From positions 1 through 52,562 of IMG/VR virus record IMGVR_UViG_3300046557_000850: a stretch of DNA of 52,562 nt; one strand, 5' to 3'. Each line of letters begins with the position of its first letter. Position 1 is the first letter of the stretch. This stretch comes from a virus. The notes under the pieces are model-generated. The model saw nothing but the letters and a program-made list of their open reading frames with translations. It did not search any database and was not told the DNA's origin. Shown here one piece after another: positions 23,199 through 48,929 of this stretch. The position numbers and the translations under genes were made by a program.

Positions 23199-24850
23199 CC
23201 GAAACGAACGTACAGATCCTTGGCGCGAACGGCCAGCCGTTACCAGCGCGTGGGAGACGTGCGCTCGCGCTGAATAGTTCCGGCAGCGGCTTTGGCAGCC
23301 AGGTTGCCTATGACGCGGCCGACATGGGCGGCCAGCACATGCGCGACTGGCAGCCGTTTCTTTGGTCGCCGGACGGTGAACTCAATCCGTATCGCGACCG
23401 TATCGTGTCGCGCGTGCGCGATCTCGTGCGCAACGATGGATGGGCTTCGGCCGCAGTCACGCGCACGCTCGACAACGTCATCGGCGCGGACTTCCGCCCG
23501 ATCTCGAAGCCGGACTACCGCGCGCTGCAGGCGCAGACCGGCCTCAAGACATTCGATCACGTCTGGGCCGACGAATTTGGCCGCGCGATCGAGGCTGGCT
23601 GGCGCACGTGGTCGGAGGATCCCGGCCGTTTCTGCGACGCGCAGCGTAAGCTGACCATCCCGCAGATGATGCGCCTGGCGTTCCGCCACAAGATCGTCGA
23701 CGGCGACGCGCTCGGCATGCTCAGGTGGATGCCGAAGCGGCTGGAGAAGGGTGCGCGGTACGCGACGGTGCTCCAACTGATCGACCCCGATCGACTGTCG
23801 AACCCGCAGCAGAACTTCGACAAGCAGATCATGCGTGGCGGCGTCGAGATCGACGAAGACGGTGCGCCTGTCGCGTATCACATTCGCAAGGCGCACCAGG
23901 GCGATTGGTTCAGCGGTAATAAACAGGTCACGTGGGAGCGCATCCAAGCCGAGACGGATTGGGGGCGTCCGATCATCGTCCACGATTACGATTTCGATCG
24001 CGCTTCGCAGCACCGCGGCGGCGCCGGCATCCTCACGCCGGTCCTGCAGCGGTTGAAGATGCTGATCAAGTATGACGGCACGGAGCTCGATGCCGCGATC
24101 ATCAACGCGATTTTCGGCGCTTACGTCACCAGCCCGTTTGACAAGCAGCTTGTCGGCGAGGCGCTGGGCGACGGCGAAGAAGAGGCGGTGAATGGGTATC
24201 AGGATGCCCGAGCGGACTTCCACGACAAGAATGATTTGCGCCTTGGCGGTGCGCGTCTGCCGATCCTGTTCCCCGGCGAGCAGATCAACACGGTTGCAGC
24301 AACGAGACCGGCTGGCAACTTCGCCGAGTTCGAAAACGCCATGCTGCGCAACGTCGCGGCCGGTACTGGTATGTCTGCGCAGCAGATCAGCCAGAACTGG
24401 TCTGATGTGAATTACAGCTCGTACCGCGCGGCGGCGCTCGAGGCGTGGAAAACGTTCGATCGTCGCCGCAGCGACTTCGGGCGCGGCTTCGGAATGCCGA
24501 TTTACTCAGCGTTCATCGAAGAGGCCTTCGATGTCGATGAGTTGCCGCTGCCCGCCGGCGCCCCAGACTTCATGTCGGCTCGCGCGGCATATACGCGTGC
24601 GTGGTGGATTGGTCCGGGCCGCGGCTATGTCGATCCGCTCAAGGAGCGGCAAGGCCAGGCGCTGGGTATCGAGACCGGAATTTCCAGTCTCGAAGAGGAA
24701 ACCGCGCAGGCGACCGGTACCGATTGGCGTGACAACGCGGATCAGCGTGCGATCGAGGTCGAGTACTACAAGAACCGCGGCGTGCCGTTGCCGTCGACAC
24801 TGGCCGGCGCGCCGGCGCAGGAAGTCACTGAGGAACCGCAAGCGCAATGA
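23195..24850 (+). CDS. Portal protein, lambda gpB family
   Basis: 551 residues. Typical lambda-portal stretches include NPYRDRIVSRVRDLVRNDGW, RTLDNVIGADFRP, GWRTWSEDPGRFCDAQRKLT and SQNWSDVNYSSYRAAALEAW. It forms the dodecameric portal ring through which DNA passes. The C-terminal tail (EEETAQATGTDWRDNADQRA) is also family-like. It overlaps genes at both ends by four bases. Confidence 0.97.
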   Translation: MTETNVQILGANGQPLPARGRRALALNSSGSGFGSQVAYDAADMGGQHMRDWQPFLWSPDGELNPYRDRIVSRVRDLVRNDGWASAAVTRTLDNVIGADFRPISKPDYRALQAQTGLKTFDHVWADEFGRAIEAGWRTWSEDPGRFCDAQRKLTIPQMMRLAFRHKIVDGDALGMLRWMPKRLEKGARYATVLQLIDPDRLSNPQQNFDKQIMRGGVEIDEDGAPVAYHIRKAHQGDWFSGNKQVTWERIQAETDWGRPIIVHDYDFDRASQHRGGAGILTPVLQRLKMLIKYDGTELDAAIINAIFGAYVTSPFDKQLVGEALGDGEEEAVNGYQDARADFHDKNDLRLGGARLPILFPGEQINTVAATRPAGNFAEFENAMLRNVAAGTGMSAQQISQNWSDVNYSSYRAAALEAWKTFDRRRSDFGRGFGMPIYSAFIEEAFDVDELPLPAGAPDFMSARAAYTRAWWIGPGRGYVDPLKERQGQALGIETGISSLEEETAQATGTDWRDNADQRAIEVEYYKNRGVPLPSTLAGAPAQEVTEEPQAQ

Positions 24851-25731
24851 ACCACCTTCTACCGCGACTGGCGCAGCGTGTTTTCAACACGCCGCTAATG
24901 CTGCACCCGCGTAAGGCGGAAATCGTTCTGGCTGCGCTATCGGAGCGTCTCGGCATCGGCATGATCGGTCGGCTCGATGGGTCGACCGTCGCGCCGATGG
25001 CTATGGAAGACGATGACTACGGCTTCGCTGAGCCCGGCAACAATCCGCGAACCGGTTATGACATGGTCGGCCCGGTCGCAGTAATCCCGGTGCAGGGCAC
25101 GCTCGTGCAGAAGCTCGGCTCGCTGCGTCCATGGTCGGGTATGACCGGCTATGACGGCATCCGGCAGAACCTCTTCACCGCGCTCGACGACTCATCGGTG
25201 AAGGCGATTGTGCTCGACATCGACTCGCCCGGCGGTGAAGTCGCAGGATGTTTTGACCTCGTCGATACGATCCACGGCGCACGCGGCAACAAGCCGATCT
25301 GGGCGATCCTGAATGAGTCGGCGTACAGCGCCGCTTATGCGATTGCGAGCGCGACCGACAAGATCTATTTGCCGCGCACCGGCGGCGTCGGCAGCATTGG
25401 CGTGATCTGTGCGCATGTCGATATGTCCCAGGCACTCACGAGCGCCGGCATCAAGGTCACCTTCATCACCTACGGCGACGCGAAAGCGGACGGACACAGC
25501 GAGATTCCGCTATCGGAAGCTGCTCACACTCGTTTCAAGGCCGACATCACAGCTATGGGGGAACTGTTCGTAGATACAGTTGCCCGCAACAGGAATATCT
25601 CAGCCGCCACGGTTCGGGATACGCAGGCCGCGACGTTCATGGGCGACAAGGGTGTCGCGCTTGGGCTTGCGGACGAAGTGGCGGCGCCAGATGCCGCGTT
25701 TCGGGCGTTGATTCAGCAGATCTCCGCCTAA
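24847..25731 (+). CDS. Head maturation protease, S49 (SppA/gpC) type
   Basis: 294 residues. The oxyanion and substrate-binding motif DIDSPGGEVAG is at 124-134, and the catalytic Ser is probably 161 in NESAYSAAYAIASATDK. GGVGSIGVICAHVD also fits S49 peptidases. It would process portal, scaffold and itself during prohead assembly. It is followed by a scaffold gene, so here C and Nu3 are separate rather than nested as in lambda. Confidence 0.95.
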   Translation: MNHLLPRLAQRVFNTPLMLHPRKAEIVLAALSERLGIGMIGRLDGSTVAPMAMEDDDYGFAEPGNNPRTGYDMVGPVAVIPVQGTLVQKLGSLRPWSGMTGYDGIRQNLFTALDDSSVKAIVLDIDSPGGEVAGCFDLVDTIHGARGNKPIWAILNESAYSAAYAIASATDKIYLPRTGGVGSIGVICAHVDMSQALTSAGIKVTFITYGDAKADGHSEIPLSEAAHTRFKADITAMGELFVDTVARNRNISAATVRDTQAATFMGDKGVALGLADEVAAPDAAFRALIQQISA

Positions 25732-47932: not shown

Positions 47933-48190
47933 TCAGTCCATCTCAATATCCGCGCCAATCTCGCGCATTTTGGCGAGCACACGATCCAGTTCGTCGGGCT
48001 TCAATGCGAGCTTGGCCGCCCCGAAGAAAAGCATCTGAGGCGCCATCTCGCGCGGCTTCTCTCCACCTGTGTATTTGCGCCATTGCTGACCGCCGGCCAC
48101 GCCAAACAGATCGGCCATCTGCTCGCCAGTTTGCTCAAGCGTGTCTTTAAGGCGTCGGAAGTCTTCCGGCTTGGGAGCGTTGTATTTCAT
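47933..48190 (-). CDS. Small DNA-binding regulator, paralogue of 42379-42663
   Basis: 85 residues: MKYNAPKPEDFRRLKDTLEQ, then GEQMADLFGVAGGQQWRKYT and REIGADIEMD. It aligns over its full length with the regulator at 42379. The central part looks like a helix-turn-helix. It is the second gene of a leftward unit controlled by the promoter at 48433. A hairpin separates it from the first gene. Confidence 0.72.
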   Translation of the reverse strand: MKYNAPKPEDFRRLKDTLEQTGEQMADLFGVAGGQQWRKYTGGEKPREMAPQMLFFGAAKLALKPDELDRVLAKMREIGADIEMD

Positions 48191-48193
48191 GTG

Positions 48194-48214
48194 AAAAAGC
48201 CACCTTTCGGTGGC
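48194..48214 (-). terminator. Hairpin-T tract directly before the regulator start
   Basis: On the minus strand GCCACC, a GAAA tetraloop and GGTGGC are followed by TTTTT, and the ATG lies four bases later (48190). It is an intrinsic terminator by shape. It could attenuate expression of the regulator or, as an RNA hairpin, control its translation. Confidence 0.65.
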
Positions 48215-48222
48215 CCTCGGAC

Positions 48223-48381
48223 TTAGTTGAACAGGAACTTCGTGATGGTCATGATCGCGAGGATCAGGCCGCTGGCCCATACGAAGGGCATCCAGCGCGA
48301 TTCCAAGTTCAGCTTTTGCGTTTCCGCCATCAGCTTGGCGATTTCCGCTTCAGTCTTGACGATGTCCAAGGCCTTTTCCAT
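48223..48381 (-). CDS. Small membrane protein of the cargo unit, 52 aa
   Basis: The ATG at 48381 has a strong AAAGGAAGAAG site. MEKALDIVKTEAEIAKLMAE begins an amphipathic helix of about 28 residues, followed by one transmembrane helix (WMPFVWASGLILAIMTITKF). A membrane peptide in a repressor-controlled unit at a prophage end is typical of superinfection exclusion or toxin-like genes. This is inference. Confidence 0.68.
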   Translation of the reverse strand: MEKALDIVKTEAEIAKLMAETQKLNLESRWMPFVWASGLILAIMTITKFLFN

Positions 48382-48471: not shown

Positions 48472-48696
48472 TCACGTCACCCGAAACTTATTTTCTGCGC
48501 GCGATCCTCGCATCTGATCCGGCTCATCGTCCGCGCCAATAGCCCGCACCCAGTACACGCAACCCGCATCGGGATTGGCCTGGATCTGCACCCGGTCGCG
48601 CAGACATTTGCAGACCGAGCCGTCCGCGAGATCGCCACCCCAATGCTCGCAGCCGACGCAGGGTTTGGGGGTGCCGTAGGGGTTGGATAGGGACAT
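48472..48696 (-). CDS. Small Cys-rich protein under SOS control
   Basis: 74 residues from the ATG 48696 (MSLSNPYGTPKPCVGCEHWG). It has a CVGC pair, CKCL and a later Cys (DAGCVYW), likely binding one zinc ion. The C-terminus is charged. A -10-like TATACT and two LexA boxes lie directly upstream. The protein itself is not recognised; damage-linked control is the best hint. Confidence 0.65.
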   Translation of the reverse strand: MSLSNPYGTPKPCVGCEHWGGDLADGSVCKCLRDRVQIQANPDAGCVYWVRAIGADDEPDQMRGSRAENKFRVT

Positions 48697-48702
48697 GGCA
48701 TG

Positions 48703-48722
48703 TACTGTATAAACGTACAGTA
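48703..48722 (-). promoter_or_regulatory. LexA (SOS) box 1
   Basis: TACTGTATAAACGTACAGTA: CTG, ten bases, CAG, with TACTGTA and TACAGTA arms, very near the LexA consensus. It overlaps the -10 (TATACT on the minus strand, 48724-48719) 7 bases upstream of the start codon of the Cys-rich gene. Confidence 0.82.
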
Positions 48723-48770
48723 TAAGATAGCTTTCCGGGGTGTGGATTTTTCTGCCACAAACCCTCGAAT

Positions 48771-48790
48771 TACTGTTTGCATATACAGTA
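48771..48790 (-). promoter_or_regulatory. LexA (SOS) box 2
   Basis: TACTGTTTGCATATACAGTA: again CTG, ten bases, CAG. It lies 68 bases from box 1. Two good boxes in tandem suggest tight LexA control of the unit. Confidence 0.8.
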
Positions 48791-48862
48791 TTCGGCCATC
48801 CCGCAAACCCTTGTAACACCGTGCATCCTGCCAAATCGGCTGTATAAGCGCACAGGTGTTTC

Positions 48863-48929
48863 GGGCTTCAAACCCAGTTGAGGACGTCAGACGTTCTCAG
48901 GTCGGTTCGACTCCGGCTGCCTTCCGCCA
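48863..48929 (+). tRNA. selC: 3' fragment of selenocysteine tRNA gene (attR)
   Basis: From GGGCTTCAAACCCAG onward the sequence fits tRNA-Sec: the TTCAAA loop carries anticodon TCA, a long variable arm follows (AGGACGT pairing with ACGTTCT), then a T arm (GTCGG TTCGACT CCGGC) and an 8-base acceptor strand with GCCA. The 5' half (acceptor 5' strand, D arm) is missing. Upstream is phage sequence. This is the displaced 3' end at the right prophage boundary. The shared attachment core should lie in this stretch. Confidence 0.9.

What the first reader, a model, noticed from the sequence alone, without database searches (positions are those of the whole stretch)
48472..48790. Prophage-edge gene with two near-perfect LexA boxes
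TACTGTATAAACGTACAGTA and TACTGTTTGCATATACAGTA lie 68 bases apart before a 74-residue Cys-rich protein of unknown function. The phage repressor appears to be S24-type and RecA-sensitive, so this gene would be co-induced with the phage but under host LexA. Candidate roles include an SOS-triggered antirepressor or lysis timer.
Basis: partly seen in the sequence, partly recalled or inferred. Interest (0 to 1): 0.72.

Follow-up and report, generated by a model that had tools for sequence, protein, structure and literature searches.

The report
SOS-switched phage gene beside LexA-marked attP
A small prophage gene is very likely switched on by the bacterium's DNA-damage response, and next to it the virus's DNA-integration site carries a conserved pair of the same damage-response switch motifs, which hints that the host's damage sensor may also gate the virus's exit from the chromosome.

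Summary
In detail: two near-consensus LexA boxes precede a 74-aa gene at a prophage edge. The boxes are two different things.

Box 1 (48703-48722) overlaps the -10 of the small gene. Such a box precedes 48 of 61 non-redundant homologues, in unrelated Burkholderiaceae phages, and matches host lexA operators. The gene is almost certainly SOS-induced.

Box 2 (48771-48790) does not belong to the gene. With box 3 it forms a pair exactly 67 bp apart in the attP P arm, between an integrase-arm-like repeat and the tRNA-Sec core. The pair recurs at 67-68 bp in related attP sites that target different tRNAs, with the small gene near or not, and the integrase on either side.

The 74-aa protein is a new four-cysteine family, possibly HiPIP-like (4Fe-4S). 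Its genes often neighbour SRAP (sharing the LexA box) or an ATP-dependent DNA ligase. This favours a phage DNA-damage accessory role over antirepressor or lysis timer; the window itself lacks SRAP and ligase.

Boldest reading not excluded: LexA bound at the attR P arm directly gates excision. Untested here: LexA binding, SOS induction, excision effects.

The parts
48472..48696 (-). 74-aa four-cysteine (CxxCEHW...C...GCxxWxRAxGxD) protein gene, stop included
   Evidence: ORF and translation; family alignments of 24 and 43 sequences with C13, C16, E17, C31, G45, C46, W49, R51, G54, D56 invariant
48703..48722 (-). Box 1: LexA operator of the small gene, overlapping its -10
   Evidence: homologous box in 48 of 61 non-redundant upstream regions; matrix score 23.0 against 18.0-24.4 for host lexA operators
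48719..48724 (-). Putative -10 hexamer TATACT, running into box 1
   Evidence: TATACTGT or TACACTGT at this place in 32 of 50 boxed loci; inference, no transcript mapped
48739..48756 (+). Integrase-arm-like repeat GGTGTGGATTTTTCTGCC of the P arm
   Evidence: same repeat beside box A in 19 att modules and on both sides of the core in 8 loci
48771..48790 (.).
   Evidence: exact in 18 of 19 arm-anchored viral modules and 8 of 10 genome modules
48838..48857 (.).
   Evidence: at 67 or 68 bp with 0 or 1 mismatch in 19 of 19 viral modules
48862..48929 (+). attR core: 3' part of tRNA-Sec from the anticodon loop to CCA
   Evidence: 81% match to an annotated tRNA-Sec in Pseudomonas phage pf8; the same core in L002, L097, L100
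1..993 (-). Tyrosine integrase whose C-terminal end faces the other (P') arm
   Evidence: Pfam Phage_integrase E 6.5e-18; 76% identical to the integrase of L002
10330..11316 (-). Phage repressor, HTH_3 plus Peptidase_S24

Best explanation
Two units abut here. (1) A single-gene SOS transcription unit: host LexA sits on box 1 over the -10 and blocks the 74-aa gene; after DNA damage RecA triggers LexA cleavage and the gene is transcribed. The product is a cytoplasmic metal-binding protein (four invariant Cys; HiPIP-like 4Fe-4S cluster or zinc) that most likely serves the phage during the damage response, as an accessory of DNA repair or processing, because relatives share their LexA box with a divergent SRAP gene or sit upstream of an ATP-dependent DNA ligase. 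(2) The P arm of the attachment site: arm repeat, box A, 51 bp, box B, tRNA-Sec core. Box A and box B are not operators of the gene but conserved parts of attP, positioned where regulatory proteins bind a P arm. Shown: boxes, spacing, conservation, gene context. Inferred: LexA occupancy, SOS induction, metal binding, repair role, function of A and B.
For: Box 1: exact CTGTN8ACAG within 110 bp upstream in 48 of 61 non-redundant regions (53 of 80 before removing near-duplicates) against about 0.01 expected from the loci's own box density; in 50 loci the box ends 0 to 18 nt before the first ATG/GTG in all but one (L085, 34 nt) and its left end overlaps TATACT/TACACT in 32; matrix from 14 host lexA operators: 38 promoter boxes mean 22.7, host operators 21.9. 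P arm: 67-bp pair pattern gives 15 viral stretches, 10 in attP-like settings, against 1 for a 61-bp control; arm-anchored scan: 19 modules of 27 stretches, box A exact in 18, box B within 1 mismatch in 19; two-arm scan that ignores the boxes: 8 of 8 stretches carry both; 3 of 299 Burkholderiaceae genomes, all three att modules, none for the reversed pattern. Repair context: SRAP divergent in 16 of 61 loci checked, DNA ligase downstream on the same strand within 2.4 kb in 18 of 61, not deduplicated. Metal fold: PDB profile best hit HiPIP E 0.035 (A2) and 0.31 (A3); Foldseek ranks 1-5 are all HiPIP-fold proteins (fold of the glycyl-radical subunits from passages of PMC12358834).
Against: 13 of 61 non-redundant upstream regions have no exact box: one has one mismatch (L002), several are fragments, and a whole clade (L026, L034, L035, L042 and near-copies) has another inverted repeat instead. 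The window itself carries neither SRAP nor ligase, so the repair role is borrowed from relatives. HiPIP evidence is weak one by one: Foldseek E 0.79, Z 2.5, model pLDDT 65, profile comparison P 0.026-0.04 at probability 1-2%; a second model was poor. No database family matched.
Confidence: 0.62

Rival explanations
1. Box A and box B are sites of another protein (a phage excisionase or the integrase, or a host bending protein) and only resemble LexA boxes; LexA plays no part at attP.
For: A and the reverse complement of B share an inner motif (about xCGYAxAY, read by eye) that promoter boxes and host lexA operators do not have; mean matrix scores 15.6 (A) and 13.2 (B) against 21.9 for host operators; window box B scores 9.7, below all 14 host operators. 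Position in the P arm is where excisionase and bending proteins bind in known phages (recalled). An IHF-like match (consensus recalled) with at most 2 mismatches lies between A and B in 9 of 22 modules.
Against: What is most conserved in 23 non-redundant modules is the LexA tetramers (mean majority frequency 0.93-0.96) rather than the inner eight bases (0.57-0.73) or the DNA between (0.56). The diverged module L101 keeps CTGT and ACAG in both boxes while most inner bases changed. Host lexA carries the same CTGTN8ACAG motif in 10 of 10 genomes tested.
Confidence: 0.45
2. The 74-aa protein is an SOS-induced antirepressor like GfoA/GftA of Gifsy phages, Tum of 186 or AntC of N15.
For: Small protein, single-gene unit outside the immunity region, under direct LexA control, as described for Gifsy antirepressors (passages of PMC3121763).
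Against: The Gifsy repressors are not cleaved on induction, whereas this phage's repressor has an S24 domain. The family spans unrelated phages (P2-like AP3; the window phage with lambda-type portal), sits in repair-gene neighbourhoods and has invariant Cys/Trp/Arg/Asp residues, more like a metal site than a fast-changing antirepressor (inference).
Confidence: 0.12
3. The gene is a lysogenic-conversion toxin or lysis timer released by SOS.
For: Autonomous SOS promoter at a prophage edge is a usual place for accessory genes (recalled); HicB-like genes lie downstream in two scanned neighbours.
Against: No lysis-family match; repair neighbours in many relatives.
Confidence: 0.1

Closest known systems
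LexA-controlled accessory genes of temperate phages (Gifsy gfoA/gftA, 186 tum, N15 antC)
   Same: Small phage gene, own LexA operator, outside the immunity region (PMC3121763 passages)
   Different: No family match found; four-Cys protein; repair-gene neighbours in relatives; repressor of this phage is of the S24 type
SRAP/HMCES-centred SOS gene neighbourhoods (PMC3765255)
   Same: SRAP, ATP-dependent ligase and small predicted zinc-chelating proteins occur together there (passages); here SRAP or ligase flank the four-Cys gene in many relatives
   Different: The phage family described here is not matched by any library searched; Ku, DinB and ImuB were not looked for
HiPIP-fold 4Fe-4S proteins, including small subunits of glycyl-radical enzymes
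   Same: C-x2-C-x13..15-C-x13..15-C followed by an aromatic residue; top structural and sequence hits
   Different: Similarity not significant alone; HiPIPs proper are exported (recalled)
P arm of tyrosine-recombinase attP sites (lambda type, recalled)
   Same: Arm repeat on both sides of a tRNA core, further sites between arm repeat and core
   Different: These further sites have the sequence of LexA boxes at fixed 67-68 bp spacing; no such case found in the papers searched

Membership tests
LexA (SOS) regulon gene | CTGTN8ACAG operator over or beside the promoter | tested here: met
   Box 1 over the putative -10, score as host lexA operators
LexA (SOS) regulon gene | Operator conserved in homologues | tested here: met
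   48 of 61 non-redundant upstream regions
LexA (SOS) regulon gene | LexA binding and induction by DNA damage | not testable with these tools
   needs footprint and RNA data
LexA-controlled antirepressor (Gifsy/Tum/AntC kind) | Direct LexA control outside the immunity region | tested here: met
   by sequence only: boxes at 48.7 kb, repressor at 10.3-11.3 kb
LexA-controlled antirepressor (Gifsy/Tum/AntC kind) | Binds and inactivates the phage repressor | not testable with these tools
   no experiment possible
LexA-controlled antirepressor (Gifsy/Tum/AntC kind) | Sequence relation to a known antirepressor | tested here: inconclusive
   no family match in Pfam, PHROGs, NCBIfam or PADLOC; not compared directly
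HiPIP (4Fe-4S) | Four Cys at CxxC...C...GWC spacing | tested here: inconclusive
   Cys spacing agrees, G-W-C is G-C here
HiPIP (4Fe-4S) | Significant profile or fold match | tested here: inconclusive
   E 0.035 and 0.31, hhalign P 0.026-0.04, Foldseek E 0.79, Z 2.5
Tyrosine-recombinase attP with P arm | Integrase gene, tRNA-fragment core, arm repeats | tested here: met
   integrase, tRNA-Sec fragment, arm repeat; the window's P' arm lies outside the record
Tyrosine-recombinase attP with P arm | Recombination at this site | not testable with these tools
   no empty site or reads examined

The most novel reading that the evidence does not exclude
LexA itself is a switch of site-specific recombination in a family of Burkholderiaceae phages. 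In the lysogen two LexA dimers sit 67 bp apart on the P arm of attR, between the integrase-arm site and the core, and lock excision (or, on infection, help integration); SOS cleavage of LexA frees the arm, so the prophage can be excised in step with repressor cleavage and with expression of the neighbouring SOS gene. The host's damage sensor would thus act on the recombination complex, not only on transcription.
Probability: 0.33. Interest if true: 0.87.

Novelty: new variant of a known kind. Interest (0 to 1): 0.62.

Why it matters
LexA is known as a repressor of transcription. A conserved pair of LexA-type boxes at fixed spacing inside attP, kept across different target tRNAs and gene arrangements, would make the question 'can the SOS repressor control prophage excision directly?' testable with a few mutants. 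The four-cysteine family is an unnamed, probably SOS-induced phage protein tied to SRAP and DNA ligase, a candidate Fe-S or zinc repair factor.

Tried and rejected
Double operator for the small gene: rejected, since box 2 pairs with box 3 in attP where the gene was not found nearby. Phage-repressor operator: unlikely, as the window has no other non-coding CTGTN8ACAG. Promoter of the integrase: rejected, since the integrase lies on either side of the module and points towards it. Known-family searches of the 74-aa protein gave nothing usable (Mug135_C at 0.012 in 2 of 24 members and YHYH at 0.02 in 1 of 24 taken as chance). Related integrases at 36-42% identity with downstream DNA (L108-L111, L113, Bordetella L148) have no box there; Bordetella IFTN2 (L149) has one box just before a tRNA core; L107 ends at the gene. 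IHF between A and B: matches in part of the modules only. A second structure model was too poor to use. Papers: no report of LexA at an att site in the held library; most were seen as listings only; passages were read in PMC3765255, PMC10710452, PMC5247547, PMC12358834 and PMC3121763. Neighbour scans covered 61 of the 82 homologue loci and, for the Pfam scans, used greedy ORFs.

Full report
Observation. The two boxes, the 74-aa gene and the prophage edge are as described. The exact core CTGTN8ACAG occurs 4 times in the window, 0.51 expected; three are here, at 48705, 48773 and 48840, and the fourth (25564) is inside an ORF. The third box ends 5 bp before DNA that matches the 3' part of tRNA-Sec, so the prophage ends at about 48862-48929. 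The window is a virus record of 52,562 bases that begins exactly at the integrase stop codon, so the other attachment arm is not held.

The gene. One viral scan with an alignment of four relatives gave 63 loci, and one genome scan gave 16 loci, all Paraburkholderia, Caballeronia or Burkholderia. With the window and two phage records, IPK and AP3, this makes 82 loci. C13, C16, E17, C31, G45, C46, W49, R51, G54 and D56 are invariant in 24 and in 43 aligned members. Pfam, NCBIfam, PHROGs and PADLOC have no usable match.

Box 1 is the gene's operator. Of 80 loci with upstream DNA, 53 carry an exact box within 110 bp; after removal of near-duplicates 48 of 61 do. The density of such boxes in all these loci, signal included, predicts about 0.01 per region. 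In 50 boxed loci the box runs into TATACT or TACACT in 32 and lies within 18 nt of the first ATG/GTG in 49. Host lexA genes have two such boxes in 10 of 10 genomes. On a matrix from 14 distinct host lexA operators the homologues' boxes score as the host's own (22.7 against 21.9; window box 1 23.0). Exceptions: L002 has one mismatch; fragments; and a clade (L026, L034, L035, L042 and copies) with a GGTAC...ACC inverted repeat in place of the box.

Box 2 belongs to attP. In L002 the same P arm (arm repeat, box, 67 bp, box, tRNA-Sec core) lies beside the integrase and the small gene is on the other side of the core, whereas in the window the P arm lies beside the small gene. Three scans of the viral collection test this. 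Scan 1, two exact boxes 67 bp apart: 15 stretches, 10 with arm repeat and att-like DNA, 5 in other DNA, apparently coding. The 61-bp control gave 1, a tandem palindromic repeat. Scan 2, arm repeat plus the first ACTGT only: 27 stretches, 19 att modules, 8 other DNA; box A exact in 18 of 19; box B at 67 (16) or 68 bp (3), exact in 11 and with one mismatch in 8. Scan 3, two arm repeats only, blind to the boxes: 8 stretches, all among those modules, all with both boxes, two of them with one mismatch in B. In genomes the pair occurs in 3 of 299 family members, all three att modules, none for the reversed pattern; the arm-anchored pattern occurs at 10 places in 9 of 144 genomes of the genus, box A exact in 8 of 10, box B exact in 6 and one mismatch in 3, and one module (L168) lacks box B and has a damaged box A. 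The cores are fragments of different tRNAs (tRNA-Sec, and others read by eye as Leu, Lys and a CAT-anticodon tRNA). The small gene was found near only some modules in the DNA held.

What binds A and B? In 23 non-redundant modules (one, L168, broken) the tetramers are far better conserved (0.93-0.96) than the inner eight bases (0.57-0.73) or the DNA between (0.56). That is what LexA would leave. Against it, A and reversed B share an inner motif, and they score lower than true operators (15.6 and 13.2; window box 2 19.2, box 3 9.7). I therefore leave LexA at attP as a serious but unproven reading. The held papers show no earlier report under the terms used.

What the protein may do. SRAP (SOS response associated peptidase) is divergent from the gene in 16 of 61 loci checked, with the LexA box between, and an ATP-dependent DNA ligase lies downstream on the same strand in 18 of 61 (not deduplicated; one locus, L079, has both). 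SRAP, ligase and small zinc-chelating proteins are known to share SOS neighbourhoods (PMC3765255 passages). The window has neither SRAP nor ligase. The best PDB profile hit is HiPIP (E 0.035 with A2, 0.31 with A3); the modest model (pLDDT 65) has HiPIP-fold proteins at Foldseek ranks 1-5, all with E above 0.7 (folds of the glycyl-radical subunits from PMC12358834 passages), Z 2.5; profile against host HiPIPs P 0.026-0.04. This is a lead for a 4Fe-4S site; zinc is the alternative.

Verdict. The unexpected result is the LexA-type pair inside attP.

Noticed in passing
window 47933-48381, minus strand: A 52-aa and a 115-aa HTH-like protein gene follow the small gene, with their own promoter-like inverted repeat (read by eye); the same pair lies by the integrase of Bordetella phage IFTN8 (L148), and the 115-aa protein recurs in many loci.
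   Followed up: partly
L026, L034, L035, L042, L045, L050, about 100 bp upstream of the small gene: A clade without LexA box has a conserved inverted repeat (GGTAC...ACC) there, perhaps another regulator's operator.
   Followed up: partly
L149, 65 bp after the integrase stop; L003 2082-2097: Single CTGTN8ACAG boxes also lie between integrase and tRNA-like DNA in Bordetella phage IFTN2 and Paraburkholderia phage IPK, whose att arms look different.
   Followed up: partly
window 25562-25581: A good LexA-like box (score 19.1) inside the ORF 24847-25731.
   Followed up: no
L053-L069, L004: In many Burkholderia phage loci SRAP and the four-Cys gene are divergent and share one LexA box, next to a cos end in the P2-like phage AP3.
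   Followed up: partly
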